From positions 1 through 61,544 of IMG/VR virus record IMGVR_UViG_3300037010_000926: DNA of 61,544 nucleotides; one strand, 5' to 3'. Under the pieces are notes generated by a model that worked only from the letters and a program-made list of their open reading frames with translations, had not been told where the DNA came from and made no database searches. This DNA comes from a virus. Shown here piece after piece: positions 1-61,544 of this stretch. The position numbers were made by a program, and so were the translations under genes. Every line of letters begins with the position of its first letter. Position 1 is the first letter of the stretch.

Positions 1-127
1 AAGGCCAAGGCCTTGCACGTCCACGAGCGCGAGGCCGCCATCGAGCACAACCGCAGGCTTGGTGGCCATGACCCGCTGCGCGTTGCCATCCCGGCAGTCT
101 GGGATGAGGCCAAGTACCTGCGCACCT
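1..127. repeat. Terminal direct repeat (circular overlap)
   Basis: Bases 1-127 are identical to 61418-61544. A gene starting at 61232 continues in frame through the join to 249, so the contig is circular. A length of 127 is what a k=127 assembler leaves on a circle, so I read it as an assembly overlap rather than a physical terminal repeat. Confidence 0.95.
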
Positions 128-4753: not shown

Positions 4754-5034
4754 CGCTTTGTGTTGGTGACCGGGTGCGGTACTGGCCGCTGAAATTCGAG
4801 CGAACCATCCACGAGGCTCGCCCGCAGCCTTTCGCGGCCACGGTCACCCACGTCTGGGGTGTCGATGGCCAAGGTCAAATACACGCCAACGTCGTCGCCT
4901 TGCGTGATGACGGGCACCCACTCATCCGCTTGAGCGTGGTGATCGCTGCACCTGGTCAAGGCCAGCCAGGGCAGTGCGAGTTCGAGGCCATTCCCACAAC
5001 CCCACATCCCGTTCAACAGTTGAGGATCACATGA
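4750..5034 (+). CDS. Small hypothetical protein, beta-rich
   Basis: 94 aa from GTG 4750. Strand-rich: DRVRYWPLKFERTIHEAR, FAATVTHVWGVDGQGQIHAN. The pattern is that of a small SH3-like barrel seen in phage proteins handling substrate values. Not assignable further. Confidence 0.65.
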   Translation: MTLCVGDRVRYWPLKFERTIHEARPQPFAATVTHVWGVDGQGQIHANVVALRDDGHPLIRLSVVIAAPGQGQPGQCEFEAIPTTPHPVQQLRIT

Positions 5035-36900: not shown

Positions 36901-39900
36901 GTGCGGGCTGCGAGCGTGAGCCGCAGCACACTGGCTCGCGCCGCGATCACTGCCGACGCGCTCGAAGGGAACATGCCGATCAAGGCCCGTGAGCCGCTTA
37001 AAAGGCCGGTGCTCTACAGCAAGGGTGCCGCCGAGCGCGAGGCGCCACCCACCAAGCGCAGCATTGCTGACTTCGTGAAGCGCGCCTGGAACATGAAGTC
37101 CCACGACCAGACGGGTGCAGTCATTGCTGACCAGGCGCCACACGCCGCCTATCTGATGGGGGAGAAAAGCCTGGGCGCTCGCCAGCCTTGGGTCATCACC
37201 CGCGACGTGGTGAACCACATCCGCACCCGGCACGCCGATGACGGGGTGACTGAGGCGATGCTGTCCAACCTGCCAGACCTCCTGAACCGCCCGCGTGCGG
37301 TGATCTATACCGAGGATGGGGTGAGTGTGTTGCTGCCTGCGCGTGACGCCAAGGGGGCGCCAATGCTGGCGCACTTCAAGCGTGAGACGTTGAGCAATGG
37401 GGACCGGCAAATGAAGCTGGTCCGCATGGCCTCGGTCTACCCCAAGGAGAACTCGGCGAGCTACCTGGCCAGCGCAATGAAGGACGGCAGCCGGATGTGG
37501 CTGCCGTCAGGGGAGTTGTCTCGGGCCAGGGCACTTCTACAGGAGGGGCCTGATGCCCATCAACCCGGCGATCAACCGGGGCTATCCCAACCTGAGTCCA
37601 GCTCTCCACCTGTTCAGGCGGCGCAACGAACCCCAAAGACAACGGACGCCAGTGTACTGTCCGACGAGGCGCTGCGCAAGTTTAGGGAGGGCGAGAAAGA
37701 CTGGGCCAAGGCTGTTGAAAACATCAGTGTCCCGAATGATGCGCCGGCTCGCTTGCGGGGCGTGAACTTTTCCAAGGGTGCCGGCGAGCGCGAGGCTGAC
37801 TACAGCTCCGGTCCCCTGGACTGGATCATGAAGAAGGCCGGCGGCAGCCTGGTGCGGGACTGGGTGACCAACCCGGTGTTCGACCTGGCCAGCAAGCTGG
37901 TGGACAAGGTGGTGCCCGAGCGGGTCAAGATGGGCCTGGTGTCCGACTTCGGCCTGGACAGGCCCTACCTGGACGCCAGGCTGGACCGGGACATCGGGAT
38001 CCACAAGGAGCTGCGCCGGGCCACCAAGACCCTGGACGGCCTGGCTGACCTGAGCCGCGATGAGTCCCGGGTGGCCTACCTGTGGATGCAGCAGGAGCCC
38101 AACACCAAGCTCGAAGCCGAGCTGCTGGCTAAGCTGCCTGAGGCATCGCGCCTGCGGCTGCAGCAGATGCGCAGCACCATCGACAACCTGGGCCGCGAGG
38201 CGGTGGCCGCCGGCCTGCTGACGCAGGACAGCTATGCCCGCAACAAGCTGGCCTACCTGCACCGCTCCTACGCTGAGCACGAGGCGCTGAAAGCCAGGGC
38301 TGGCTCGGTGTCGTCGCGCCAGGCGGCCACGGTGCGGGCTGACACCTACAAGGGGCGCGGGATCCGCGACGACGTGGCCCAGGAGAAGCTGATCCAGCAT
38401 GTCGACGAGATCAAGGCAGGCGACAAGCTGCTGCGCGTGGAGCGCCGCGACAGTACCGGCCGGGTCAACAAGGTCGAGTACATCCGGCCCGACGACAAGG
38501 TTCCGATCGGATTTACGCCAGAGCACATCTGGGAAGCCCGTTGGCTGGGTGGCCCTTCGGCCACCAAGGTGGGCCTGTGGCGCGACCTGACGCCCGAGGA
38601 GCGCCAGCGCCTGGGGGAGATCGACGAGGTGCGCTTTGCCTTTGCCAAGACCGTGCTGGGTGCCACGCGCGACATCGAGAACCAAAAGTTCCTGGGCTGG
38701 ATCGCCGACACCTACGGCAAGGACACCGTGCCCGAGGACAAGATCGCCAGCGGCGCGGACACCTACCTCAGCTCCAAGGCCTACAAGCTCGACGAGTTTG
38801 TCAAGGTGCCTGACACCACGATCGCCAAAACCGGCGGGCTCAAGAAATACGGGCGGGCCGCCGGCAAGTACGTCCCAGCGGTGGTCTGGAATGACATGCG
38901 CAACCGGATGGCTGTGCCTGAGTCTGAGCTGGCCCAGTGGTGGCACAGCCTGACCCGGGCCTGGAAGATCAGCAAGACGGCGCTGAGCCCGGCTGTGCAC
39001 ATGAATAACGTGATGTCCAACGTCATCATGGCCGACATGGCAGACCTGGGCGCGCACCACATTCTAAGCTCGCTCAAGACGCTTGTGGACGCGCACCGGG
39101 GCAAGGCTGAGGCCCAGGCCCTGCTGGAGCGCTACGAGGATTCTGGGGCCGAGCTGGGTTCGATGGCTGCCCGCGAGCTGAACCTGCGCTTCATTGAGCC
39201 TTTGCTGGCTGAGCTGGAAGCCAAGCAGGCCGACGAGCTGGGCATGACGCGGCTGAGCCAGATCATCAACATGGCGGCCCACGGCAGGATCAGTGAGGCT
39301 TTCACGGCACTGGGCGCCAGGAAGGAGGTGCGCCTGGCCGCGCTGCCCTTCAAGAAAATGGTCCAAGTCTACCAGGCCGAGGACGGCGTGTTCCGCCTGG
39401 CCAAGTTCCTGCGTGAGGTGGAGGCTGGCCGGTCGGACAAGGACGCCGGCACTGCCGCGCGTGAGGCCTTCCTCGACTACAACATCAACGCGCCCTGGGT
39501 CCAGACCCTGCGCAAGACCGGGCTGCCCTTCGTGGCCTTCAGCTACCGTGCCATCCCGCTGGTGGTCAACGCGCTGCGCGGGAAGCCCTGGAAAATCGCC
39601 AAGTACATGGCCACCGCCGCTGCGCTCAACGCGATGTTCTACGCCATGCTGGGGATGTCCAAGGAGGACGCGGACAAGGAGCGCAAGCGCAACCTGCCGC
39701 CCGAGCTGCAGGGCTCTACCTGGGGCGTGTTCCCGCGTGCGATGCGGATGCCTTGGAATGACAAGAACGGCCAGCCCGTGTTCCTGGACACCCGGCGCTG
39801 GGTTCCGGCGGCTGACGTGTTCGATCTGCAGGGCAACCACTCAGCGCTGCCGATCCCTGGCTGGCTGCAGGCCGCCGGCCCGCTGGCGCTATTCGGCGAG

Positions 39901-40383
39901 CTGATGCTCAACAAGTCCAGCTTCACCGGCCAACCCATCATCCTGGACACCGACACGCCGGCCGAGGCGACGGCCAAGGTCGCCGACTACCTGTTCAAGT
40001 GGATGGCGCCCAACCTACCGCTGCCTGGGCCTGGCTACCTCATCCCTGGCACCGACAGTGGGCAGATGCAGACCTACTCCTGGCAGTCGATGATGAACGC
40101 GGGCAAGGGCAAGACGGACCCCTTTGGTCGGGAGCAGAGCCTGCCCCAAGCCATGGCCAGCTCAATCGGCGTCAAGGTCAAGACCTACCCCGAGGACACT
40201 GCCAGGCTGCGCCTGGTGCAGAAGCTGTCCAGTGACACCAGCGAGATCCAGCGCAACATGAGTTCGATCGCCCGCCAGTACGGCACCAACGGCATCGACA
40301 AAGAGGAGTTCGATTCCCGCATGAAGCGCCAGACTGACAAGCTGGAGAAGGCCACCAAGGAAGCGAAGGAGGCGCTGGACTGA
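30952..40383 (+). CDS. Giant polyvalent ejected virion protein with SLT domain
   Basis: 3,143 aa. Residues about 43-170: SLT transglycosylase (LYGQESGSGANAKTSVDGAQ, catalytic Glu). About 925: HEVVGHHG, a zincin-like metallopeptidase motif. About 1,460: HDYFAH domain of polyvalent proteins. About 2,080: TRDVVNHIRTRHADD, resembling barnase/EndoU-type phage nuclease (PBECR) domains. The C-terminal 1,000 aa are helical with hydrophobic stretches. Such proteins are packaged, injected with DNA and carry several host-takeover activities. Linkers hold three nested ORFs. Confidence 0.85.
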   Translation: MDLDLSNLSTTYDPYSAPAPQPAPAAAPAATPLQAGTSNIDDLIRQEGADKYAPVIRALYGQESGSGANAKTSVDGAQGGMQVLPKTFKAMLPDGDPNNPTHQIIAGIRYAKMLGDRTNGDPARMAAGYFSGPGNINAKGGTPFIHDAVDGNGKSVSSYVADVLGRIDKGDAPAAGAAPSQPPQWSAIAADPDFNRLSDDDQEQVRQNYLNKVVLPTVPTDQIGAVTELFNKRTAPSMVAGALRVAKDLGIDAASQVVGNVGGSLVRGVGSMMADPSNTEAELAQQPDQASQQAAKELKDRRESGVANTVGEWLKSRGQNAQAFGALMREQMSDKGQREAAKSAVEGSILKGEFHVNPDASAETYAHIFPGLLGSLADIVVGGAVAGPPGAMAVGAAQMSGQAQEAADAVTDQQLRDTPMYKGLVESGASTDSALSDTRALVTQAAGRSGEVMGAAGGGLLTDIFSKAGASWLLNHIKGTASRFAARTAAGSAEGSAFMVGQGVATNESMNQAAGSQLVDPGQGSAQNLALGAAMGPLAGMRELHGGAKPAPGDAIPAKDVIDNPPEGGAPRLEAPVVRPDWEVVDGQQQLGGPPGDQGGGPGIDPNAPRLPPPDASSRTIVANEAGDARVMSAAQVAELHNQWVEREIAAAQGQSTRQTARQQRAEMGLTDDVLQAQHRRDQSQEVTDVPSKEVAPKPEAPAPRVAEAPSGGAADESGRGQVSPVVADEHTSGGKPGAPQGAAAGSGEVVSDGAGRGEQAAPVAGDAAGEHPFVGSVVSFRYRGKTIRGRVASVDDNNRANVMLGEEPIGNAPGYRAGMQVPLTRLKKIGFSAFDLSMPEGKAVGADDAGAAHTVSTFRDTFPGADKLDVQLVRSEADVPDGAVRSNNTEAWYDRATGKVTVVLDAIGGKDEATRQRRLAEVLAHEVVGHHGMESLLMAKDPSGALLRRTLADVSRVLSDEVQPSDLGSDGQVKIGNPRYVSTEAVRLMYPDATPNEVAMETLARAAEMGIKPGLVDSLVTAVRQALRPLLNKLGIKLAFSRAEILSLVQAARKHVQERANKVLSKNQAAKVSEIQGDTQVASQRAPKDDKVAINLSAATDTIPGLKQARERANAGVPGAAEHLNAIAKNAIEHLTSGIKGVKIAFHDNKGLYFGELEPSLGMELSFPPESRGQVLAAMARFADNFNQQQIHVLQPAKEIEGTTHPDGSFNTVVRRIDLAKPLERSRVQQVIDESGLGGLNFSGKHIEAYYVGDPEKSDAITEFEHGFDRAVAAVGADGASTRRAVARLWRYGEPGDASDRGVIPYADIAGDVRPRQALASETAKRVAQQLHGQEVKPADTREITPEQRKLHKRIAADYEAMPQDDLANPLVRKAYAALGKEVKRQYDALPIKVEVYKGDGEPYANSQAMRQDVADHNHLFIYGTDKDSFGPPGVKYDNHPLLKASGRKDINGVPLLNNDLLRAVHDYFAHNVSDAQFGPKGEEAAWRNHMAMTNDPLARWALTSETRGQNSWVNFSGDRTGERGAGPLIERGFAEQKVGLLPIEHAMTGDASVDAGMRELERSLPAKDKQGSLGKTVESRGAKDREEYDAFNLDRDLTDKVKDKKPGLSKDDKIALQSELQAQQSGFNDMDLARQAAKDVQQISDDKIAAMGVHAEDAFPKLKFTKSKDGDEYEKWTAPLWIQGHPDEGQIIQRMGKKSWNAAPPTLLGAGHALSLLGLETVKAGQAYIQRIAASVELFRRGYDLLSSVDSKAVTRLTKAWRQIAANRGAFEFSGRMSQAEGSTTLEVMNDVGEQLLLGTGYRLNVERAGSHHFEVTIRDLKGVTHEASLEHRGAGAHANFVVHAAGLDRGTGAGKVLYQFAQAVADEYHMKILPDPNGLTGVNTYRRTEQMFSGAARLGKSGPMQPGVGQRIYGWDSKATTAKAHEANFARLALAIKRNVGELVPEFRAGDIHYDPTKDVFTQDGKDAEPLVKEILARPDVRAASVSRSTLARAAITADALEGNMPIKAREPLKRPVLYSKGAAEREAPPTKRSIADFVKRAWNMKSHDQTGAVIADQAPHAAYLMGEKSLGARQPWVITRDVVNHIRTRHADDGVTEAMLSNLPDLLNRPRAVIYTEDGVSVLLPARDAKGAPMLAHFKRETLSNGDRQMKLVRMASVYPKENSASYLASAMKDGSRMWLPSGELSRARALLQEGPDAHQPGDQPGLSQPESSSPPVQAAQRTPKTTDASVLSDEALRKFREGEKDWAKAVENISVPNDAPARLRGVNFSKGAGEREADYSSGPLDWIMKKAGGSLVRDWVTNPVFDLASKLVDKVVPERVKMGLVSDFGLDRPYLDARLDRDIGIHKELRRATKTLDGLADLSRDESRVAYLWMQQEPNTKLEAELLAKLPEASRLRLQQMRSTIDNLGREAVAAGLLTQDSYARNKLAYLHRSYAEHEALKARAGSVSSRQAATVRADTYKGRGIRDDVAQEKLIQHVDEIKAGDKLLRVERRDSTGRVNKVEYIRPDDKVPIGFTPEHIWEARWLGGPSATKVGLWRDLTPEERQRLGEIDEVRFAFAKTVLGATRDIENQKFLGWIADTYGKDTVPEDKIASGADTYLSSKAYKLDEFVKVPDTTIAKTGGLKKYGRAAGKYVPAVVWNDMRNRMAVPESELAQWWHSLTRAWKISKTALSPAVHMNNVMSNVIMADMADLGAHHILSSLKTLVDAHRGKAEAQALLERYEDSGAELGSMAARELNLRFIEPLLAELEAKQADELGMTRLSQIINMAAHGRISEAFTALGARKEVRLAALPFKKMVQVYQAEDGVFRLAKFLREVEAGRSDKDAGTAAREAFLDYNINAPWVQTLRKTGLPFVAFSYRAIPLVVNALRGKPWKIAKYMATAAALNAMFYAMLGMSKEDADKERKRNLPPELQGSTWGVFPRAMRMPWNDKNGQPVFLDTRRWVPAADVFDLQGNHSALPIPGWLQAAGPLALFGELMLNKSSFTGQPIILDTDTPAEATAKVADYLFKWMAPNLPLPGPGYLIPGTDSGQMQTYSWQSMMNAGKGKTDPFGREQSLPQAMASSIGVKVKTYPEDTARLRLVQKLSSDTSEIQRNMSSIARQYGTNGIDKEEFDSRMKRQTDKLEKATKEAKEALD
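33017..33244 (+). CDS. Nested ORF 1 within the giant gene
   Basis: 75 aa in the +1 frame relative to the giant gene, preceded by a perfect AGGAGG seven bases before ATG. Product MSPAKKLRQSLKRQLPGWLR... is basic and helical with sensible composition, while the giant protein here is a low-complexity linker (APKPEAPAPRVAEAPSGG). Probably a real overlapping gene or the relic of a gene absorbed by fusion. Confidence 0.55.
   Translation: MSPAKKLRQSLKRQLPGWLRRPVEARQMSLAEARYLLWWRTNTPQGESLALPRVLQRAAGRLYLMEQDAANKLPL
34706..34963 (+). CDS. Nested ORF 2 within the giant gene
   Basis: 85 aa, same +1 frame as nested ORF 1, GAGG six bases before ATG. LPLLAQMARAHDERLRASG reads as a genuine helix; flanks are Ser/Pro-rich. 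The giant frame is again linker-like here. Confidence 0.45.
   Translation: MSATPKNQTPSPSSSTDSTEQLPLLAQMARAHDERLRASGVTVNLETPATEESSPTQTLRAMFVPGKRSPAKPPSGSPSSSTGKK
37553..37765 (+). CDS. Nested ORF 3 within the giant gene
   Basis: 70 aa, same +1 frame, AGGAGG six bases before ATG 37553. The first 20 residues (MPINPAINRGYPNLSPALHL) look protein-like; the rest is Arg-rich and may be shadow. Lies just after the nuclease-like domain of the giant protein. Confidence 0.35.
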   Translation: MPINPAINRGYPNLSPALHLFRRRNEPQRQRTPVYCPTRRCASLGRARKTGPRLLKTSVSRMMRRLACGA

Positions 40384-40576: not shown

Positions 40577-41815
40577 CTATCGCGGTCCTATCGCGGAATC
40601 GGGCTCGACCCCGCCACCCAGCGCGGCATTCACGGCAGCCAGGTTGCGCCCTCGATCGGCCTTGGGGATCCAGCCGGCGTAGTCCTTCATCATGGTCTGG
40701 ACCGAGTGGCCATGCTGCCTGGCCACCCAGTACGGATCCGCCCCGGCTGCCAGCGCCATGGTCACCGAGGTATCGCGCAGCTCCTTGGGCGGCCGGTGGC
40801 GCACGCCCACGCGGCGCAGGCTGGCCTGCCACTCGCGGCGCTGCTCCTCCCCGGTGTTCCAGGGCCGATCGGTAAAGGGGTTGAGGAACACCAGGCCCTC
40901 GGGGCGCATCTGCGTGCGGGCGCGCTGGCGCTCCACCACTGACCAGGCCAGGTCATTCAGCTCGACGGTGCGGGCGGTGTGGGTCTTGGTGCGCTCCTTG
41001 GTCTGCTTGAGCACACTGGAGCGGCTGACCCGGGCGGTGCGTTGCCTGAAGTCCACGTCGACCCAGCGCAGCGCGATCTGTTCGCTGGGCCGCAGGCCGG
41101 CGTAAGCGGCGAAGGCGTAGTAGTCGGTCAGGGCCAACGCCTGCTCCTGGCTCATCTTGCCGCGTGGCCGGCGAAGGTCGGCCAGGATCAGCTCGATCTC
41201 CTGGGGTGTAAAAGGATCCGGGGCGCCCCCCTGGACTTTCAGGCACTTGATGCCGTCCGTGGGGTTGGGCATGGCCAGCGACTTGCAGATCAGCTCGAAC
41301 ACAGCACGCAACGGGATCAGGATGTTGTTCTGGGTCTTGCGGCTGAGCCCTTTGGTGGTGAGCCCCGTCTGGTCATCGAACTTGTCCGTCGCCAAGGCTG
41401 ATAGCCTGGTGAGCACCATCTCGTGGCTGATCTTGCGCGGCGCCAGCGAGCCCCAGGCCGAGGTCCAGTAGGCGGCCAGGTGGGTGCGGTAGATTTTGAT
41501 GGTGGAGTGCTCCAGGTCGCGCGCCGCGAGCTGGCCCCACAGCTCAGCCCATTGGCCAAAGCTGCGGGTGCTAGCGCTGTCGGTGGCCTGGTGGCGATCG
41601 GCGAAGCGGTAGTCGGGGAAATAGTCGGCCAACCTGAAGGTGCCGGCCTTAATTGCGTCCTGGATGGTCTGACGTAGGCGCTGGGCATGGCGTAGGTTGG
41701 CAGCGGTGGGCTTGAGGTCCAGGGTGGGTCGCAGATCCTGGCCCTGCCATGTGAAGCGCACGGTGATGCGGTCGCCTGCCGGTACTACCCCGCCCGTCGT
41801 TGGCCTTCTACCCAT
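40577..41815 (-). CDS. int: Phage tyrosine integrase
   Basis: 412 aa. N-terminal arm-binding domain of the DUF3596 type (GDRITVRFTWQGQDLRPTLD). Catalytic domain: box I AAYAGLRPSEQIALRWVDVD; box II KELRDTSVT, with Lys where His is usual; then ARQHGHSVQTMMKDYAGW with the His and Tyr. It lacks what I recognise as the extra integron-integrase helix, so it is not IntI. Acts on the attP next to its 3' end. Start overlaps xis. Confidence 0.9.
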   Translation of the reverse strand: MGRRPTTGGVVPAGDRITVRFTWQGQDLRPTLDLKPTAANLRHAQRLRQTIQDAIKAGTFRLADYFPDYRFADRHQATDSASTRSFGQWAELWGQLAARDLEHSTIKIYRTHLAAYWTSAWGSLAPRKISHEMVLTRLSALATDKFDDQTGLTTKGLSRKTQNNILIPLRAVFELICKSLAMPNPTDGIKCLKVQGGAPDPFTPQEIELILADLRRPRGKMSQEQALALTDYYAFAAYAGLRPSEQIALRWVDVDFRQRTARVSRSSVLKQTKERTKTHTARTVELNDLAWSVVERQRARTQMRPEGLVFLNPFTDRPWNTGEEQRREWQASLRRVGVRHRPPKELRDTSVTMALAAGADPYWVARQHGHSVQTMMKDYAGWIPKADRGRNLAAVNAALGGGVEPDSAIGPR

Positions 41816-42033
41816 CGCTCGTACCCCACCAGATCCACCAGCACGTTGCCATCTGGGGCGCGAATGTACTCATACCCCTCCAGCCAGACGCCACGCTTGA
41901 TCTTGGTCTGTATCGCCTCAATGGTGTAGCCCGTGGCCGCTTGGGCGGTGGCTAGGCGCACATAGCGGGACGGGCTCACCGGCAGGTAGGCCACGCGAGC
42001 CTTGCGATCATCGGGGGTGTCCGGGTTGGGCAC
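41785..42033 (-). CDS. xis: Excisionase
   Basis: 82 aa from GTG 42033. Residues 20-75 form a winged-helix excisionase-like domain: LATAQAATGYTIEAIQTKIK, then GVWLEGYEYIRAPDGNVLVD. It overlaps the int start by 31 bases, giving translational coupling. It would bend attL/attR to favour excision. Confidence 0.85.
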   Translation of the reverse strand: MPNPDTPDDRKARVAYLPVSPSRYVRLATAQAATGYTIEAIQTKIKRGVWLEGYEYIRAPDGNVLVDLVGYERWVEGQRRAG

Positions 42034-42118
42034 AGCTTACACCTCACTGGTAGACGACTCAAGGTGTCGCATAACCTGGTCAATCTTGGTCTGACGCCCG
42101 GGGCGGCGACGTGTTACA

Positions 42119-42149
42119 CAACAGGGTTGTCGTAGAACTTGTGTTAGGC
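42119..42149 (+). other. Left edge of the array, attI-like or eroded attC
   Basis: R''-like GTTAGGC at 42143-42149 ends one base before the stop of the first cassette gene. Upstream is a small hairpin ACAAC/GTTGT (around 42120) within GTTAC...GTAGAAC. This could be the original insertion site (attI-like) or a decayed attC. No integrase gene lies beside it. Confidence 0.45.
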
Positions 42150-42150
42150 C

Positions 42151-42414
42151 CTAGAGCCCGTTTCGCAGTTCGGCCACGATAGGGTCAATCTGCTGGCGGT
42201 TGTAGTCGTTGCGGTGCCACTCCACGATCTGCACTGCCCGCGCCTTGCACCGCTCGCGCTCTGCGGCAACTGCTGCGTCGAGCGCGGAGCGCATGTCTCT
42301 TTCCCATGCCGGATAAGTTCCATGCTCGATAGCCATCCCCCACTTCTGGCTGAACTCCACTACTGGGCCTAACAGGTCGTTCGAGGCCACAGCCTTCGGT
42401 ACGTTGTCGTTCAT
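42151..42414 (-). CDS. Cassette gene 1, hypothetical
   Basis: 87 aa. FSQKWGMAIEHGTYPAWERD, then LDAAVAAERERCKARAVQIV and a short helical end. Phage-type small protein of unknown role. Shine-Dalgarno AAAGGA lies in the eroded attC 1 just upstream; stop lies at the array edge. Confidence 0.7.
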   Translation of the reverse strand: MNDNVPKAVASNDLLGPVVEFSQKWGMAIEHGTYPAWERDMRSALDAAVAAERERCKARAVQIVEWHRNDYNRQQIDPIVAELRNGL

Positions 42415-42416
42415 CG

Positions 42417-42665
42417 TTAGTCCTTTCGAGGCTGGGCCTCAACTCCGAAGTTGGGCGTCTTGCTGCACGCCGCCGCCGGGTATTCCAGCGCATCGGTCGG
42501 GTGGTACAGGTGAGATCGCTTGCCGCCAGGAATCCACAGCCGCAAGTACTGGCCGCGTGAACCGACGATGCGCGCTTGAATGCGCGCGCCGTCACCGACA
42601 ATCGTGACGGTCATTCCGCGCTTGGCCGGAACCTTGTAGGCTCTGCGGATGTAGTCCATGCTCAT
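42417..42665 (-). CDS. Cassette gene 2b, hypothetical
   Basis: 82 aa from ATG 42665. MSMDYIRRAYKVPAKRGMTV, VGSRGQYLRLWIPGGKRSHL: a small beta-barrel-like protein common in phages. The reading frame runs through eroded attC 1 (C-terminus ACSKTPNFGVEAQPRKD), so its tail is encoded by the recombination site. The start overlaps the upstream stop (TGATG). Confidence 0.7.
   Translation of the reverse strand: MSMDYIRRAYKVPAKRGMTVTIVGDGARIQARIVGSRGQYLRLWIPGGKRSHLYHPTDALEYPAAACSKTPNFGVEAQPRKD
42428..42456 (+). repeat. attC site 1 (eroded)
   Basis: Hairpin GAGGC/GCCTC 42428-42440, then L''-like CCTCAAC, spacer TCCGAA and R'' GTTGGGC 42450-42456. No R'/L' half is recognisable. The upstream gene reads through it. 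Confidence 0.55.
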
Positions 42666-42880
42666 CACCGGCTCCCGCAGCGCCAGCATCCGGCCACCTT
42701 GCCCCAAGCGCACTCGTGGCAACCTGCCGAGCGCACGGGGCCAGCGTTGGGGCCGCTGGAAATCAGGCGCGCTCGCTGTTCAGGCGTCAGCGTGCCGGCG
42801 CTGGCGCGCTGTTCCACCGGCCGCCCAACCCCTCGCTCGAAAGGAGGCGCAACGGCCGGTGTCTCGTTTTCGGGCTTCAT
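42665..42880 (-). CDS. Cassette gene 2a, Cys-containing small protein
   Basis: 71 aa from ATG 42880. Acidic/Pro N-terminus, TLTPEQRARLISSGPNAGPV, then CHECAWGKVAGCWRCG, a four-Cys pattern able to bind zinc. Coupled to gene 2b by overlap. Starts just inside eroded attC 2. Confidence 0.6.
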   Translation of the reverse strand: MKPENETPAVAPPFERGVGRPVEQRASAGTLTPEQRARLISSGPNAGPVRSAGCHECAWGKVAGCWRCGSR

Positions 42881-42910
42881 CGCGCGCACCTTTCAGCTCG
42901 AACGTTATGC
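42847..42910 (+). repeat. attC site 2 (eroded)
   Basis: R'' GTTATGC 42904-42910 with spacer TCGAAC is clear and contains the TAA of cassette gene 3. A possible R' GCGCAAC lies at 42847-42853, one mismatch from the complement of R'' at 42450. L boxes are not convincing. Confidence 0.4.
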
Positions 42911-43186
42911 AGCACCAACAGCCGCATCCCACTGCCGCCGCATCTTGTCCAGCATCTCCACGTCGTCGCTGGTTAGTGCGTGGCCTGGCTTCTGCGCCAG
43001 GTTGTAGGCAAAGTTCGCCAGCAGTCCGCCGGCTGACCTCGCGACAGCGTGCCGCTTGTCGCACCCAGCTATCGCCAGCGCTTCCACGCGCTGCGCGAAC
43101 GCATGCACCGTTCGGCCGGTCGGTGCGCCTTCCGGGGCGCCTCGCGTCACATCGCGCCATTCCCTGTTCGCCGTCTTTCTGTCCAT
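42905..43186 (-). CDS. Cassette gene 3, phage-type hypothetical
   Basis: 93 aa. MDRKTANREWRDVTRGAPEG, then RSAGGLLANFAYNLAQKPGH and a helical end. This small protein is familiar from Burkholderiales prophages, function unknown. Shine-Dalgarno AAAGGAA upstream; its stop TAA lies in R'' of attC 2. Confidence 0.75.
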   Translation of the reverse strand: MDRKTANREWRDVTRGAPEGAPTGRTVHAFAQRVEALAIAGCDKRHAVARSAGGLLANFAYNLAQKPGHALTSDDVEMLDKMRRQWDAAVGAA

Positions 43187-43226
43187 CTCAGTTCCTTTCG
43201 TTGTTGCCCAGCATGGGCCGGGCGCT

Positions 43227-43292
43227 GCCTAACATCCGCTCAACCTGACCCATCCGGCAAGCCGGCCGTGCTGGTTAGCTCAATCGTTAGGC
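43227..43292 (+). repeat. attC site 3
   Basis: R' GCCTAAC 43227-43233, L' GCTCAACC 43238-43245, L'' GGTTAGC 43273-43279, spacer TCAATC, R'' GTTAGGC 43286-43292. L' has one extra C relative to the complement of L''. Inner hairpin CCGGC/GCCGG. Confidence 0.9.
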
Positions 43293-43586
43293 CACGCACT
43301 CTGTCGGCGGCGTCACTTCGCGGTTTGCTCTGAGCCTGTCGATGGTGCGCTGAAGATTGACGGCTTCAGCTTCGCGCTTCTCCGCTTGAATTCGCACCGC
43401 ATCGTGTAGCCAGTCGAGCCGACGCCCCAGGCCCTCTACGATGTTGTTCGCGTTTTCACGCGCATACGATCCCGGCTCCAACAGTTGCGCCATGCTGCTC
43501 ACGGCAAACTTGAGGCGGTCAAGCTCAGAGAGCACTTCATTTGGCCCGTAGAACTCATTCCCGAGGGTTCTGTTTCGCTGCCCCAT
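43287..43586 (-). CDS. Cassette gene 4, helical hypothetical
   Basis: 99 aa from ATG 43586 (GGAAAGGA upstream). MGQRNRTLGNEFYGPNEVLS, then coiled-coil-like stretches (RRLDWLHDAVRIQAEKREAE). Its TAA lies within R'' of attC 3. Confidence 0.7.
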   Translation of the reverse strand: MGQRNRTLGNEFYGPNEVLSELDRLKFAVSSMAQLLEPGSYARENANNIVEGLGRRLDWLHDAVRIQAEKREAEAVNLQRTIDRLRANREVTPPTECVA

Positions 43587-43609
43587 CTGCTTCCTTTCCG
43601 GCCAACGTG

Positions 43610-43696
43610 GCCTAACTGGTAGTTGCATCGGACCCGCATCGCGGGCATTGGTTACTCGGTCGGGTCAGCGGCGGGCCGCTGAACTCCACGTTATCC
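43610..43696 (+). repeat. attC site 4
   Basis: R' GCCTAAC 43610-43616 and R'' GTTATCC 43690-43696 are clear; L boxes are weak. The interior holds two hairpins, CCCGC/GCGGG and TCAGCGGC/GCCGCTGA. A 35-codon ORF (43612-43719, minus) spans the site. Confidence 0.65.
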
Positions 43697-43719
43697 AGAC
43701 ACCAATACCGGCTCGTCAT
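43612..43719 (-). CDS. Zinc-ribbon-like micro-ORF across attC 4
   Basis: 35 aa: YWCLDNVEFSGPP then QCPRCGSDATTS, with one WC and one CPRC knuckle. It overlaps the end of cassette gene 5 and ends at the TAG in R' of attC 4. Composition is protein-like, but it may be incidental. Confidence 0.35.
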   Translation of the reverse strand: MTSRYWCLDNVEFSGPPLTRPSNQCPRCGSDATTS

Positions 43720-44137
43720 CGGCTCCAGCGCTTTGCGGGGCCTTGGTGGTGTCCACGTCAAAGGCCAGCCGCATGAACCGCGCCGCCGCAGCATTGGCCG
43801 CGTCGTGCGGCGCCCCCTCGTCCATCATCGAAACCGCGACGTTGCAATGCCAAGTCCACGCATAGTGCGGGTCGTCACGCATCGCGCTCTTGATGATGTT
43901 CATGGTTTCGCCGCACGGTGAGGCTGCCCTGCCAGGTCTGCACCGTGCAGGCCACTGGAAGAAAGGATCGCAGGCCTGGTCCACGCCGCGCAGCGTGAGA
44001 AACGCTTTCACGGCATCGGCGGCTGGTGCTGCGTCGTCGGTGGCTGAAAGCGTGATGCGCTCATCGCGGGTTGTCAAAAAACCGGCAAAGTCGTAGATCG
44101 CGCCAGAAACAATATGGTCAAGGCTTTCAATGCTCAT
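43691..44137 (-). CDS. Cassette gene 5, apparent fusion of two phage-type proteins
   Basis: 148 aa. Residues 1-62 (YDFAGFLTTRDERITLSATD, then DPFFQWP) and residues 79-148 (MNIIKSAMRDDPHYAWTWHC, HDAANAAAARFMRLAFDVD) each look like a separate small phage protein. The joining stretch ARCRPGRAASPCGET is encoded by a GCACGGTG/CACCGTGC inverted repeat, perhaps a lost site between two cassettes. TAA lies in R'' of attC 4. Confidence 0.7.
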   Translation of the reverse strand: MSIESLDHIVSGAIYDFAGFLTTRDERITLSATDDAAPAADAVKAFLTLRGVDQACDPFFQWPARCRPGRAASPCGETMNIIKSAMRDDPHYAWTWHCNVAVSMMDEGAPHDAANAAAARFMRLAFDVDTTKAPQSAGADDEPVLVSG

Positions 44138-44174
44138 TGGATTTCCATTCGCTTGCCAGCATTTACAGGGTGCT

Positions 44175-44235
44175 GGCTAACCCTTCGTTTAAGGCCCGAC
44201 TGCCTTCGGCAGCGGCCTTAACTCAATCGTTCGGC
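44175..44235 (+). repeat. attC site 5 (textbook)
   Basis: R' GGCTAAC 44175-44181, spacer CCTTC, L' GTTTAAGG, inner stem CTGCC/GGCAG, L'' CCTTAAC, spacer TCAATC, R'' GTTCGGC 44229-44235. L' has one extra T relative to the complement of L''; spacers are 5 and 6 bases as in aadA-type sites. Polarity: plus. Confidence 0.95.
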
Positions 44236-44236
44236 C

Positions 44237-44563
44237 TCACGCGGCGCGGTCCAGCCGCTCAATCTCGGCGACGATCAGCGCGCCAGCCCGCACCAGGTCT
44301 GCACGCGGGTTTTTCGGCTTGAGCCATTGCAAGGACCATCCAGACCAGCGCCAGATCAAACGCTGCAGGTCTGACCCTGCGGTGTAGGGTCCAACGGCAT
44401 ACGATGCGGCGGCAACAGCCATGTTGCCGGCCATGTGCTTGTCATCGTGCTCGGGCGTCCAGCCCTCAACCTCGATCTGCCGTCGCCGCTCGGTAGCAAT
44501 GTCGCGCAGGGCATCCGATCCCCAAGCAATCGGGGGCGGTGCTTCGTGTGTTCCTTGGTCCAT
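44237..44563 (-). CDS. Cassette gene 6, phage-type hypothetical
   Basis: 108 aa from ATG 44563 (MDQGTHEAPPP; AAAGGAAAG upstream). Core DIATERRRQIEVEGWTPEHD, then AGNMAVAAASYAVGPYTAGS, a widespread phage protein of unknown role. The stop is two bases from R'' of attC 5. An upstream in-frame ATG at 44587 is possible. Confidence 0.75.
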   Translation of the reverse strand: MDQGTHEAPPPIAWGSDALRDIATERRRQIEVEGWTPEHDDKHMAGNMAVAAASYAVGPYTAGSDLQRLIWRWSGWSLQWLKPKNPRADLVRAGALIVAEIERLDRAA

Positions 44564-44581
44564 CGTCTTTCCTTTCGTGTC

Positions 44582-44613
44582 GGCCACAAGCGGGCCTAAT
44601 TCAAACGTTGGGC
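44582..44613 (+). repeat. attC site 6 (eroded)
   Basis: GGCC/GGCC hairpin remnant, L''-like GCCTAAT, spacer TCAAAC and R'' GTTGGGC 44607-44613. The R'/L' half is missing. Confidence 0.5.
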
Positions 44614-44617
44614 AGCA

Positions 44618-44803
44618 TCAGTCTTCGGTGCTGTCGCAGCTTAGGCACTCAACGTCGTCGCCCATGTCGCACATGCAGCACTTCTCTGCACCGCAATGCG
44701 GGCATTCATCAAGTCCCTGTGGCTCGTTCGGTTTGTTGTGCTTTCGGTCGTGCGTAGTAGCGCCACAGCTTGGGCATTCATCATCGGTTTCGCGGTAGTT
44801 CAT
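44618..44803 (-). CDS. Cassette gene 7, multi-zinc-knuckle protein
   Basis: 61 aa from ATG 44803 (AAGGAAAAAC upstream). Four Cys pairs: CPSC, CPHC, CCMC and CLSC; acidic C-terminus. Probably two zinc ribbons. Could bind nucleic acid or act as a small adaptor; no family assigned. Confidence 0.7.
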   Translation of the reverse strand: MNYRETDDECPSCGATTHDRKHNKPNEPQGLDECPHCGAEKCCMCDMGDDVECLSCDSTED

Positions 44804-44824
44804 GTTTTTCCTTCCGGGCGTGCT

Positions 44825-44884
44825 GCCCAATAGTTCAATCAAGCCGACCTCCCTGCGGTCGGCAACTTATCTCAGGCGTTGTGC
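44825..44884 (+). repeat. attC site 7
   Basis: R' GCCCAAT 44825-44831 (one base off), L' ATCAAG with stem GCCGACC/GGTCGGC, L'' CTTAT, R'' GTTGTGC 44878-44884. The extra C in L' is again present. The C-terminus and stop of the methyltransferase gene lie in this site. Confidence 0.8.
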
Positions 44885-45357
44885 CCTACTACCACGAAGC
44901 CGAGGCCGCTTTGCCTGAGTGCGTCCAGGTTCGCGCTTCCGTAGGCCACCAGTGCTATCGGGGCGCCGCTGTTGAAATCCGCCCGCCGTCCGTCCACGTA
45001 GTGGAAGTGCGGGCGCCCTTTGAGGAACAGCACGCCGTCTGCCGCTCCCCAGATCGTTTCGTAAAACATCGCCGTCTCGGTGCGCGCCGGAATCAAGGCC
45101 ACCCCGTTCCCGTGGTCGCGCATCTTCCGAAGCCACTTCACGGCCTCGCGCCCGAATGGTGGGTTGCACCACACGCGGCCAAACCACGGCAACGCCAGCC
45201 CATCGTCGTGCGCCGTGTAGTGCTGTGCCGCCGTTTCCCAAGGCCGCACCACTGGCGCGCACGGGTCAAGATCGAAGGCGCCTAGCGCCCGCAGGATCTC
45301 CGGTGGAGTCAGCCATTCGTCGTGTCCGCCATTCTTCTGGTGCGCGCTCAAACCCAT
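44872..45357 (-). CDS. Cassette gene 8, phage N6-adenine DNA methyltransferase
   Basis: 161 aa. DEWLTPPEILRALGAFDLDP, then GRVWCNPPFGREAVKWLRKM with the catalytic NPPF motif, and an AdoMet-site Asp in DLDPCAP; matches the phage Dam-type family (PF05869 from memory). Length is normal. It would methylate adenine, perhaps masking phage DNA from restriction. Its last codons (GHNA) are contributed by attC 7. Confidence 0.88.
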   Translation of the reverse strand: MGLSAHQKNGGHDEWLTPPEILRALGAFDLDPCAPVVRPWETAAQHYTAHDDGLALPWFGRVWCNPPFGREAVKWLRKMRDHGNGVALIPARTETAMFYETIWGAADGVLFLKGRPHFHYVDGRRADFNSGAPIALVAYGSANLDALRQSGLGFVVVGHNA

Positions 45358-45376
45358 CTCACTTGTCCCCCGTGTG

Positions 45377-45446
45377 GCACAACCTGTCGCGCGAAGGGAC
45401 GCGCCGCGATGAAGCTGCGTCGCGCCCCTCCACTCTGTCGGTAGGC
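45377..45446 (+). repeat. attC site 8 (degenerate)
   Basis: R' GCACAAC 45377-45383 is the exact complement of the unit's left R'' (GTTGTGC, 44878). R'' reads GGTAGGC 45440-45446, one mismatch from the complement of R' at 45710. Interior stem GGGaCGCG/CGCGcCCC with mismatches. Confidence 0.6.
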
Positions 45447-45450
45447 CCGC

Positions 45451-45687
45451 TCAAGTGAAGGCGCTCCACCCGTTGTCCGGGTCGTACTCGCCGCCGTCCT
45501 CGGACAAGCCGCCTTCCGACTGGAACCAGCCAAGCTCGCACATGCGCTGCTGGTCTGCTGGCGTCAGGGGCTTGTCGGTCTTGTAGGCGTAAAACTGGTC
45601 GTGCTCGGCGCCGATGTGGAAGCCGTCGCCGTCCGTGTAGTACGGGCGCAGCGTGTTCAGGCCGTCAATGAATTTGCTCAGTCTCAT
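45451..45687 (-). CDS. Cassette gene 9, phage-type hypothetical
   Basis: 78 aa. RLSKFIDGLNTLRPYYTDGD, then GFHIGAEHDQFYAYKTDKPL and an acidic Gly-rich tail (GGLSEDGGEYDPDNGWSAF). Known among phages and bacteria as a short conserved protein; function unknown. GAGAGGA upstream. Confidence 0.75.
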   Translation of the reverse strand: MRLSKFIDGLNTLRPYYTDGDGFHIGAEHDQFYAYKTDKPLTPADQQRMCELGWFQSEGGLSEDGGEYDPDNGWSAFT

Positions 45688-45763
45688 GCTTTTCCTCTCC
45701 AGCCCGCAGGCCTAACTGGTCGCTCAAGCGGCGCGCTGCCGGCGTGCTGTCGTTGTCCATCAT
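45665..45763 (-). CDS. Micro-ORF starting in the loop of attC 9
   Basis: 32 codons (MMDNDSTPAARRLSDQLGLR...), with AGGAGG almost touching its double ATG. It starts in the attC 9 loop and overlaps the start of gene 9 in another frame. Might couple translation across the site; product function unlikely to be guessed. Confidence 0.35.
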   Translation of the reverse strand: MMDNDSTPAARRLSDQLGLRAGEEKHETEQIH

Positions 45764-45805
45764 TCCTCCTGTGCGGGCAGCGCCCGCTTAGCTCCAAAGT
45801 TGGGC
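45710..45805 (+). repeat. attC site 9
   Basis: R' GCCTAAC 45710-45716, spacer TGGTC, L' GCTCAAGC 45722-45729, L'' GCTTAGC 45786-45792, spacer TCCAAA, R'' GTTGGGC 45799-45805. About 17 paired bases with the canonical extra C in L'. The 34-base loop holds a minus-strand AGGAGG and ATG. Confidence 0.92.
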
Positions 45806-45835: not shown

Positions 45836-45928
45836 TCATCCGGCACGTCCGCAGAGCCCCAACAGCAGGCACGGCCTGAGCTGGCCCAGGGTCATCAACC
45901 CGGCGCGGTTGATGGGCGTGGTGCTCAC
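45836..45928 (-). CDS. Short ORF at the right edge of the array
   Basis: 30 aa from GTG 45928 (VSTTPINRAGLMTLGQLRPC...), overlapping the stop of the DUF1351-like gene. May be the remnant of a gene truncated where the array joins the phage backbone. Confidence 0.35.
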   Translation of the reverse strand: MSTTPINRAGLMTLGQLRPCLLLGLCGRAG

Positions 45929-46797
45929 GCCGCCACCTTGCGGATGGACACGGACTCCTTGAACTCGGCGTGGCAGCCGGGCACCTTGAAGTTTTCGCGC
46001 TGCAGATCGGCCAGCTTGTTCAGGGCCGACTGGTCCACGCTCAGCACACCGACCAGCGAGAGGTCACCCTTCTCGATCAGCACGGCCACATGGGCGATCA
46101 GCTTCGGGGCATTGGTGCACTCAGCCACATACTTGCCACGCACACCTTTGGTTTTGGGTGCTGCGTGCCCGCCGCCGCTGCTGTAGCTGACAACCTTCTG
46201 GGCCTGATGCAGCGCCGTGTCGGACGCCACTGCAGCGCGCTCCATCAGATCGTTGGCGGCGACCACGCTGCCCGCCTGGCGCGCTTCCTGGGCCTGCTGA
46301 GCCAGGTTCAGCGCCTCGGTCTGGGCTGCGGCCTCAACCAAAGCAGCGGCGGCCACCGCTTCCTCGTGCGCCTTGCGCTCGATCTCTGCCTGCTCGGCGG
46401 CCTTGCGCTGCACCTCCTTGTTGTAGCCGAGGATCTTGGTCTTGGTGCCGTCGACCTTGGTGTTGATGAAGGTGCCGGCCGCGTTGTAGCCGTCGTTGAT
46501 GCGGGAGGCCAGGTCGCGCAGGGGCTTGGTGCGCTCCAGGCGCTCCTTCTCGATCGCGACTGAGACGCCAGACAGGCGGCCCGCCATTTGCTGGGCCTCG
46601 GCCAGCATCTCGGGCGAGTCGATGATGATGGCGTCGATCACCTCCAGGTCGGGACCGATACGGTTGACGTATTCCTGCAGCCCCGGACTGACGATGGTGA
46701 TGCTGCTCGGCTCGGCGAGCACCTTGGCCACCAGGGCTTGCAGATCGGCCATCGGGCCGGTGGTGGCGAGGGTGGCGACGGTGATGTCTTGTGTCAT
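45925..46797 (-). CDS. DUF1351-like protein of the recombination cluster
   Basis: 290 aa. Helical, with a coiled coil around GYNKEVQRKAAEQAEIERKA and KERLERTKPLRDLASRINDG near residue 85. Similar proteins sit beside RecT/Erf/Sak annealing genes and Cas4-like nucleases in phages. Starts 4 bases inside the nuclease stop. Confidence 0.65.
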   Translation of the reverse strand: MTQDITVATLATTGPMADLQALVAKVLAEPSSITIVSPGLQEYVNRIGPDLEVIDAIIIDSPEMLAEAQQMAGRLSGVSVAIEKERLERTKPLRDLASRINDGYNAAGTFINTKVDGTKTKILGYNKEVQRKAAEQAEIERKAHEEAVAAAALVEAAAQTEALNLAQQAQEARQAGSVVAANDLMERAAVASDTALHQAQKVVSYSSGGGHAAPKTKGVRGKYVAECTNAPKLIAHVAVLIEKGDLSLVGVLSVDQSALNKLADLQRENFKVPGCHAEFKESVSIRKVAA

Positions 46798-47384
46798 GAC
46801 TTGCTCCAGCGGTAGACGTTAAGGAGGGAGCAGAACGCCGGCCAGTCGGCCGGGTTGTCCCACGAGAGAAATCGGTAGCGGCCATCGGGCCTGAGCTGCA
46901 CCGAGCCGCGCCTGGCGCGGATGTAGCGCGGATCCTGGTTGGCACGCATGGCCCGGTAGGCTGCGGTCTGCATCCCCCAGGCCTTGTGGTCTTGCAGGCT
47001 GCTCTTGATGTCGATGACCCAGGGCTCAGGCTCGCCGTCCAGCGTGCCGGTGCGGTCCCAGGTGCCGGCAAACCCGGCGTCGTGGTAGTCGCGCTCCTCG
47101 ACCGAATCCCAGACCGGCTTGCGGTCGCGGATAAAGGCCTTCCACGCCTTGAGGTAGCCCATGTACAGGCCGTCCTCCATCAAGGCCAGCGCCTCCTCGT
47201 CCAGCTCACCCAGGTCATAGGCCTCGGTCATGGCGTGCACAAACGTGCCCCGCTCCTGGGCCACTTCGAGGATGTGCTTGGGCACACCCGCGAAAGGCTG
47301 CAGCAGATTCAGCACCTGGGTCACGCTGGGCACCACCTGTCCGTGCCAGCGGTAGGTGTGCGAGGAGGGCTCGAAGGTCAGCAT
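46794..47384 (-). CDS. PD-(D/E)XK exonuclease, Cas4/RecB-like
   Basis: 196 aa. YRWHGQVVPSVTQVLNLLQP, AQERGTFVHAMTEAYDLG (the GxxxH motif), FAGTWDRTGTLDGEPEPW then VIDIKSSLQDHK, the D...DxK catalytic core. Would resect DNA ends for phage recombination together with the neighbouring 393-aa protein. Confidence 0.75.
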   Translation of the reverse strand: MLTFEPSSHTYRWHGQVVPSVTQVLNLLQPFAGVPKHILEVAQERGTFVHAMTEAYDLGELDEEALALMEDGLYMGYLKAWKAFIRDRKPVWDSVEERDYHDAGFAGTWDRTGTLDGEPEPWVIDIKSSLQDHKAWGMQTAAYRAMRANQDPRYIRARRGSVQLRPDGRYRFLSWDNPADWPAFCSLLNVYRWSKS

Positions 47385-61239: not shown

Positions 61240-61544
61240 GGTCACGTTCATGGTCGGTGGCCGGGAGGTCACAGCCGGTGATCTGGCCAAGGTGGCGGCG
61301 GCCCAACCCAAGGCCAAGCGGGCGCCATCGGATCGACCCAAGAAGGTGGCCAACCGCGCTGACGCGAAGTACAGCATGGGCTTCCTGGTCACCGGCTTCA
61401 CCCGCGAGCACATCGAGAAGGCCAAGGCCTTGCACGTCCACGAGCGCGAGGCCGCCATCGAGCACAACCGCAGGCTTGGTGGCCATGACCCGCTGCGCGT
61501 TGCCATCCCGGCAGTCTGGGATGAGGCCAAGTACCTGCGCACCT
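61232..61544 (+). CDS. Hypothetical phage protein, N-terminal part (continues at 1-249)
   Basis: First 104 residues of a 144-aa protein: MAEVTFMVGGREVTAGDLAK, basic linker KPKAKRAPSDRPKKVANRAD, then YSMGFLVTGFTREHIEKAK. Overlaps the previous gene. Only whole when the contig is closed. Confidence 0.85.
   Translation, partial: MAEVTFMVGGREVTAGDLAKVAAAQPKAKRAPSDRPKKVANRADAKYSMGFLVTGFTREHIEKAKALHVHEREAAIEHNRRLGGHDPLRVAIPAVWDEAKYLRT
61418..61544. repeat. Terminal direct repeat, second copy
   Basis: Identical to 1-127; see that entry. The unique genome length is therefore 61,417 bp. Confidence 0.95.

What the first reader, a model, noticed from the sequence alone, without database searches (positions are those of the whole stretch)
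42143..45805. Integron cassette array (CALIN) inside a temperate phage genome
Nine GTTRRRY/RYYYAAC-bounded units lie between xis and the recombination genes. Sites at 43227, 44175, 44825 and 45710 show the full R'-L'-L''-R'' layout with the extrahelical base. No integron integrase is seen in the genome; the only tyrosine recombinase has a phage-type arm-binding domain. I know of cassette arrays without integrase in chromosomes, but not of one this long in a phage.
Basis: partly seen in the sequence, partly recalled or inferred. Interest (0 to 1): 0.95.

Follow-up and report, generated by a model that had tools for sequence, protein, structure and literature searches.

The report
Mirror-image integron array in a phage
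This phage carries a row of nine exchangeable gene cassettes of the kind bacteria use to shuffle antibiotic-resistance genes, but, like every phage array found with the same kind of site, it has each gene pointing the opposite way from bacterial cassettes, and some sister phages carry their own cassette-shuffling enzyme, which suggests that phages keep a separate integron system of their own.

Summary
The array is real. A covariance model built only from bacterial attC sites scores six sites in 42.3-45.8 kb at 34-47 bits and two at 22 bits; nothing else in the 61.5 kb genome exceeds 10 bits. No integron integrase (IntI) is present. CALINs in phages are already published (Qi 2023, PMC9892861), so that part is not new.

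(1) Every cassette ORF is inverted relative to its attC. In 25 distinct phage contigs with such arrays 169 array genes are reversed and 1 is not; bacterial arrays found with the same pattern give 35 reversed and 585 forward. (2) A weak attI-like site (42111-42149) sits at the array edge beside xis/int, where sister phages carry intI. (3) A clade of 21 phage-encoded IntI (SH-aLRT 95) accompanies such inverted arrays.

Cassettes move: the window's Dam-methyltransferase cassette recurs in other phages, homology starting exactly at the G|TT core; other phage pairs share whole cassettes between G|TT cores.

Best reading: an intI-less member of a phage integron lineage with a mirror-image cassette pool, transcribed by the early operon and enriched in counter-defence genes. 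Recombination in trans and function are inferred.

The parts
42111..42149 (+). attI-like site (GTGTTACACAACAGGGTTGTCGTAGAACTTGT|GTTAGGC), left edge of the array; first G|TT core at 42143
   Evidence: Best hit in the whole genome, both strands, of a profile of 14 phage attI sites plus attI1: 11.6 bits, E 0.017; position and strand as in intI-bearing phages
42151..42414 (-). cassette 1 ORF, 87 aa, unknown function; its N-terminus is encoded inside the attC at 42367
   Evidence: gene call; no Pfam or PHROG hit
42367..42456 (+). attC 1
   Evidence: 41.1 bits; bottom-strand fold z -2.37
42417..42689 (-). cassette 2 ORF
   Evidence: gene call; PHROG 2730, unknown function
42823..42910 (+). attC 2
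   Evidence: 43.5 bits
42905..43186 (-). cassette 3 ORF, stop codon inside the R' box
   Evidence: gene call
43227..43292 (+). attC 3, the best site
   Evidence: 46.7 bits; textbook bottom-strand hairpin
43287..43586 (-). cassette 4 ORF, stop codon inside the R' box
   Evidence: gene call
43610..43696 (+). attC 4, weak
   Evidence: 22.1 bits, E 4e-4
43691..44137 (-). cassette 5 ORF, stop codon inside the R' box
   Evidence: gene call
44175..44235 (+). attC 5
   Evidence: 34.0 bits; fold z -2.22
44237..44563 (-). cassette 6 ORF, small conserved phage protein
   Evidence: PHROG 11504 and relatives, E 1e-33; 152 phage records
44594..44646 (+). degenerate attC with eroded 5' half; R' core GTTGGGC at 44609
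   Evidence: 9.4 bits; read directly from the sequence
44618..44803 (-). cassette 7 ORF, zinc-ribbon-like
   Evidence: PHROG 5584, E 3e-10
44825..44884 (+). attC 7
   Evidence: 39.4 bits
44872..45357 (-). cassette 8 ORF, DNA N6-adenine methyltransferase (Dam type); the same cassette occurs in other phages
   Evidence: PF05869 E 6e-10, PHROG 111; shared with L327, L329, L361, L328 and L331 from G|TT onward
45377..45446 (+). attC 8, weak, degenerate R' box GGTAGGC
   Evidence: 22.2 bits
45451..45687 (-). cassette 9 ORF
   Evidence: gene call
45710..45805 (+). attC 9
   Evidence: 44.5 bits; fold z -2.48
45925..46797 (-). recombination-module gene upstream of the array in the same operon (PHROG 10477, listed as exonuclease)
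46794..47384 (-). exonuclease
   Evidence: PHROG 298, E 2e-24
41785..42033 (-). excisionase (xis)
   Evidence: PHROG 539
40577..41815 (-). phage tyrosine integrase with arm-binding domain, not IntI
   Evidence: PF12167 and PF00589; TIGR02249 only 20 bits against a cut-off of 265

Best explanation
The region is an integron platform that belongs to phages: an attI-like edge plus nine gene cassettes, each made of [TTRRRY - inverted ORF - attC - G]. It is built into the leftward early operon (recombination genes, array, xis, int) of a temperate podovirus-type phage. The attC sites are ordinary integron sites and point in the usual direction away from attI, but each cassette's ORF is inverted. The operon promoter therefore reads the cassettes toward attI, with the stop codon usually in the R' box and the next start codon 20-39 nt beyond R''. 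Cassettes are gained and lost by IntI acting on folded attC bottom strands and joining at G|TT of R'. This phage lacks intI, so the enzyme must come in trans, from a co-infecting or co-resident phage of the IntI-bearing lineage or from a host integron. The cargo is a rotating set of small accessory genes, probably largely counter-defence. SHOWN here: attC identity, inversion, anatomy, absence of IntI, cassette-exact sharing between phages, a phage IntI clade with the same layout. INFERRED: IntI catalysis for this array, supply in trans, operon expression, counter-defence role, and that the weak attI match is a true attI.
For: attC model hits, all on one strand. Array genes reversed:forward 169:1 in 25 distinct phage contigs, against 35:585 in bacterial loci fetched with the same pattern. 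Genes flanking each site: both reversed 167, both forward 0 in phages; both forward 552, both reversed 2 in bacteria. The contigs carry terminase, portal or major head genes. 28 viral loci encode relatives of the G012 IntI, and 18 of these loci have attC upstream of intI. There attC lies on the strand opposite intI as in bacteria (47:2 against 62:1) while cassette genes lie on the intI strand (68:4, against 6:55 in bacteria). 21 phage IntI form one clade, SH-aLRT 95. Conserved phage attI and its best window match at the array edge. Cassette-exact exchange: G027/G031, G005/G017, G002/G021, and the window's Dam cassette in L327, L329, L361, L328. Single-cassette differences between near-identical phages G018/G030 and G009/G027. 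Cargo among 141 array proteins includes about 5 DNA methyltransferases, 2-3 Lar restriction-alleviation proteins and one Acb2/Tad1 domain.
Against: No IntI in this genome. The attI match is weak (E 0.017). Two of the nine boundaries are degenerate, so the array may be decaying. No relative of this phage with a different array was found; the only close record, L005, is 100% identical over 15 kb. In several shared cassettes the right-hand breakpoint lies in the R''/spacer part of attC, and G009/G027 joins at R'', which simple bottom-strand recombination does not predict. Most array proteins have no known function.
Confidence: 0.8

Rival explanations
1. Ordinary CALIN: a fragment of a bacterial integron array captured by the phage, as in the Vibrio anguillarum and Shewanella prophages.
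For: The attC sequences are of a type also found in bacteria such as Rubrivivax; such captures are published.
Against: Gene orientation relative to attC is opposite to bacterial arrays in essentially every case. None of 187 phage array proteins matches the 119 bacterial loci (a limited sample). The window's Dam and cassette 6 proteins match phage genes. The array is embedded in the phage early operon.
Confidence: 0.06
2. Fossil: the sites once were attC, but the block is now a fixed part of the phage operon, the hairpins being kept as mRNA or operator elements.
For: No IntI; two degenerate boundaries; two attC sites are translated through by ORFs.
Against: Six of nine sites remain strong. The Dam cassette recurs in other phages next to unrelated attC sequence, with homology starting at G|TT. 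Sister phages differ by single cassettes.
Confidence: 0.1
3. Phage annealing recombination (exonuclease plus single-strand annealing protein) shuffles genes through the short conserved attC boxes, so the boxes act as homology linkers rather than IntI substrates.
For: Recombination genes lie next to the array; some junctions lie in R''/spacer with about 9 bp of identity; attC bodies are sometimes swapped between related cassettes.
Against: Does not explain conservation of the extrahelical base and spacers, the co-occurring phage IntI clade and attI, or left breakpoints repeatedly at G|TT.
Confidence: 0.04

Closest known systems
CALINs and integrons in phages (Qi et al. 2023, PMC9892861)
   Same: attC arrays without integrase in temperate and virulent phages; some active with IntI1
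   Different: Reported cassettes in TJE1 and PH101 run in the usual direction; no inverted-cassette rule, no phage-specific IntI clade and no attI in an intI-less phage were described in the text read here
Sedentary chromosomal integrons of Xanthomonadales and Burkholderiales
   Same: attC architecture, attI and intI geometry, G|TT boundaries
   Different: Cassette ORFs run with attC, away from intI; here they run against attC, toward intI
Treponema-type integrons (PMC3607928)
   Same: Cassette genes run in the same direction as intI
   Different: There intI itself is flipped and reads toward attI (that the cassettes are then normal relative to attC is my inference); here attC keeps its normal direction relative to intI and attI, and the ORFs are flipped inside the cassettes
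Class 1 integron (IntI1/attI1)
   Same: Same wider IntI neighbourhood in the tree; attI1 end resembles the phage attI
   Different: Mobile resistance platform with Pc reading away from intI; none of that here

Membership tests
CALIN (cluster of attC lacking integrase) | At least two attC sites close together | tested here: met
   Eight sites of 22 bits or more within 3.5 kb
CALIN (cluster of attC lacking integrase) | No integron integrase nearby | tested here: met
   TIGR02249 negative in the whole closed genome
Complete integron | intI gene of the integron integrase family | tested here: not met
   Absent from the window; present in sister phages such as G012, 428 bits
Complete integron | attI site at the head of the array | tested here: inconclusive
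   Best profile hit in the genome lies at the expected place, but only 11.6 bits, E 0.017
Canonical integron cassette | ORF oriented with attC (attC downstream of the gene) | tested here: not met
   All genes in the array are opposite to attC
Integron cassette in general | Mobile unit bounded at G|TT of R' | tested here: met
   Dam cassette shared with other phages from G|TT; whole-cassette sharing in sister phages
Integron cassette in general | Recombination by IntI on the folded bottom strand | not testable with these tools
   Only structure and junctions were examined
Phage inverted-cassette integron (group defined here) | Inverted ORFs, location in the phage early operon near int | tested here: met
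Phage inverted-cassette integron (group defined here) | IntI of the phage clade | tested here: not met
   Window lacks it; most CALIN phages found here also lack it

The most novel reading that the evidence does not exclude
Phages have their own integron lineage: a phage-specific IntI clade and attI, and a cassette pool that is the mirror image of the bacterial one (ORF inverted inside the cassette). The pool stays separate from bacterial integrons because a cassette that is expressed in one context is antisense in the other. It serves as a shuffled library of counter-defence and accessory genes, the phage counterpart of bacterial integrons that store defence genes; intI-less phages such as this one use the enzyme in trans.
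Probability: 0.65. Interest if true: 0.92.

Novelty: new variant of a known kind. Interest (0 to 1): 0.86.

Why it matters
Integrons are a main route by which bacteria assemble resistance and defence genes. If phages carry a parallel system with reversed cassettes and their own integrase, that gives a site-specific mechanism for phage mosaicism in the accessory region, a ready way to mine small counter-defence genes (everything between attC sites), and a test of what fixes gene direction in cassettes. Annotation pipelines that assume genes run with attC would misread such arrays.

Tried and rejected
Rfam has no match in the window. Isolated phages: megablast found only part of an Acidovorax phage integrase, and a blastn search with one phage attC found nothing, so no cultured phage with this array type is known to me. 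The closest integrase relative, ACF1, has an ordinary gene block beside int. Relatives of this phage through rec, exo and int in IMG/VR: only the identical contig and distant exonucleases. Crude longest-ORF orientation was too noisy in high-GC phages (73 reversed, 52 forward) because antisense ORFs compete; a codon-model gene caller was used for phages and, with slightly different training, for bacteria. I considered that the sites might be canonical cassettes recombining on the other strand, with the crossover at R''. Left breakpoints at R' argue against it as the main mode, but R'' breakpoints remain unexplained. Two further attC patterns gave few loci: one contig with one forward array gene (L324), one uninformative, and none for the other. 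The literature held here has no report of inverted phage cassettes or a phage IntI clade; bioRxiv and most subscription journals are not covered.
Full report
CHECK OF THE OBSERVATION. The window is a closed phage genome (127-bp terminal direct repeat) held as an IMG/VR record. It has podovirus-type head genes: portal, major head and large terminase. The relevant stretch is a leftward block: CI-like repressor, exonuclease and a recombination-module gene, then the finding, then xis and int. I built a covariance model from 61 attC sites of bacterial genomes only, with the structure R''/R' and L''/L' plus the extrahelical base. In the window it gives 42367 (41.1 bits), 42823 (43.5), 43227 (46.7), 44175 (34.0), 44825 (39.4), 45710 (44.5) and two weak sites, 43610 and 45377 (22 bits). 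All are on the + strand and nothing else exceeds 10 bits, apart from a 14-bit reverse reading of 43227. Controls: class 1 integron sites 41-71 bits, a TJE1 phage site 26 bits. A separate scanner gives five high-scoring sites in the region against 0.01 per shuffle. Four of eight bottom strands fold better than shuffles at z below -2. The nine units are there; two boundaries are degenerate. Caveat: the training sites came from loci found with a pattern modelled on these sites, but all are from bacteria.

INVERSION. The extrahelical base lies in the 5' half of the + strand, so + is the top strand, and in a normal array the genes would run on +. All array ORFs are on -. I searched IMG/VR and the genome collection with one attC pattern that carries no information about genes. 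It returned 32 viral loci and more than 119 stretches of bacterial genomes, of which 119 loci were used. With codon-model gene calling, array genes in bacteria are 596 forward and 36 reversed including one viral-collection locus that is a bacterial integron (L031), or 585:35 without it. In phages they are 1 forward and 186 reversed, or 1:169 after removing near-duplicate contigs, and 1:161 without the window. Genes in one operon are not independent, so the safer unit is the array: all the phage contigs with informative arrays are reversed, including G002, G003 and G024, which each carry two arrays facing opposite ways. Per site, both flanking genes are reversed 167 times in phages and forward 552 times in bacteria, with 0 and 2 exceptions of the opposite kind. 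The anatomy is stereotyped: the stop codon commonly falls inside the R' box (61 sites at the same offset) and the next start codon usually lies 20-39 nt from R''. In the window, two sites contain the start codon inside the attC loop (42367 and 45710). The contigs are phages: terminase, portal, major head, tail or endolysin genes were found in most of those checked.

INTEGRASE AND attI. The window has no IntI; its own integrase is of the arm-binding phage type. One pattern-found phage, G012, carries major head, tail and phage integrase genes and a full IntI (428 bits against a cut-off of 265) next to four inverted cassettes; G015 has an IntI remnant in the same place. Searching with the G012 IntI gave 28 viral loci. 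Relative to intI, attC points the same way as in bacteria (phage 47:2, bacteria 62:1 on the strand opposite intI), but the cassette genes lie on the intI strand (68:4) where bacterial ones lie opposite (55:6). So the platform is normal and only the ORF inside the cassette is flipped. This differs from Treponema, where intI itself reads toward attI. In a tree of 107 IntI, 21 of 23 phage sequences form one clade (SH-aLRT 95) within a mostly betaproteobacterial radiation and next to a group that includes class 1 IntI; L229 and L230 lie elsewhere (quick method, no bootstrap). The nearest bacterial IntI in a sample of 299 proteobacterial genomes are 54-59% identical. Just upstream of intI these phages share GTGTTACGCCGC...GCGGTCGAATT followed by GTTRGGC, which resembles the end of attI1. 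A profile of it has its best hit in the window at 42111-42149, on the + strand, ending in the first G|TT of the array beside xis: 11.6 bits, E 0.017. The score is weak, but the place and strand are as predicted. G024 has a clear attI (31 bits) and no IntI. I read the window as a platform that has lost intI.

MOVEMENT. Unrelated phages share single cassettes. G027 and G031 are 91% identical from GTTAGGC of one site through the next whole attC and diverge on both sides; G005/G017 do the same; G002/G021 share the left junction. Near-identical phages G018 and G030 differ by exactly one cassette; G009 and G027 by another, although that junction lies at R''. The window's own cassette 8 (Dam methyltransferase) recurs in L327 (91% DNA), L361 (90%), L329 (85%) and L328 (82%). 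In each case homology starts at the G|TT box while the preceding sequence is unrelated, and only that block matches the window. L327 and L329 sit in attC arrays on the expected strand. Not explained: in several pairs the shared block ends a few bases inside R''/spacer, so the attC body has been replaced. Recombination of the top strand, gene conversion or annealing by the phage recombination genes could do this.

FUNCTION. Of 141 phage array proteins few match Pfam. Those that do include N6/N4 DNA methyltransferases (4), a D12-class methyltransferase, Lar restriction alleviation (2, or 3 by PHROGs) and an Acb2/Tad1 domain. With the window's Dam gene this suggests counter-defence cargo; for the rest it is inference. 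None of 187 array proteins matches the 119 bacterial array loci, consistent with separate pools, but that bacterial sample is small and mostly Xanthomonadales.

MECHANISM. Most likely IntI, supplied by another phage or a host integron, recombines folded attC bottom strands at R'. Cassettes are read by the phage early operon, so only inverted ORFs are sense-expressed and kept; a bacterial cassette landing here would be antisense, and a phage cassette landing in a host integron would be antisense to Pc. That would keep the pools apart. Why the first phage integron was oriented this way is not known. Bouvier et al. (PMC2727003) showed that the extrahelical base selects the strand so that captured genes are expressed; phages appear to have kept the base and turned the gene.

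NOVELTY. CALINs and integrons in phages are published (PMC9892861). Inverted cassettes as a rule, a phage IntI clade with its own attI, and intI-less members were not found in the literature held here. I class it as a new variant of a known kind. Limits: one attC sequence class was searched, canonical-orientation arrays do occur in phage records (TJE1, L031, probably L324), hosts are unknown, and nothing was tested at the bench.

Noticed in passing
window 1-127 and 61418-61544: A 127-bp direct terminal repeat, so the genome is complete or circularly permuted. An identical contig is present in another record, IMGVR_UViG_3300035661_000125 (100% over 15 kb).
   Followed up: yes
window 45684-45763: Short ORF starting with ATG inside the attC loop at 45710 and running through its L''/R'' half into the start of cassette 9, as if translationally coupled; attC 42367 likewise encodes the N-terminus of cassette 1. 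About 18 phage attC sites show this start-inside-attC form.
   Followed up: partly
L194 17549-18658 and 16072-17364 (record G012): A phage with two tyrosine recombinases in a row: an integron integrase followed by a phage integrase, both at the end of the cassette operon.
   Followed up: partly
L029 3602-3640 (record G024): Clear attI (31 bits) with an inverted array but no intI in the contig, parallel to the window.
   Followed up: partly
G009 6373-6841 against G027 4796-4891: Single-cassette difference whose junction lies at R'' rather than R'; similar attC-body swaps are seen in other shared cassettes, including the right end of the window's Dam cassette.
   Followed up: partly
window 30952-40383: A 3143-aa ORF filling the space before int; function not examined. 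A comparable giant gene in record G005 matches a DarB-like antirestriction family.
   Followed up: no
window 3670-3747: ARAGORN reports an odd tRNA-like gene with a four-base anticodon (cagt) inside a coding region; probably spurious.
   Followed up: no
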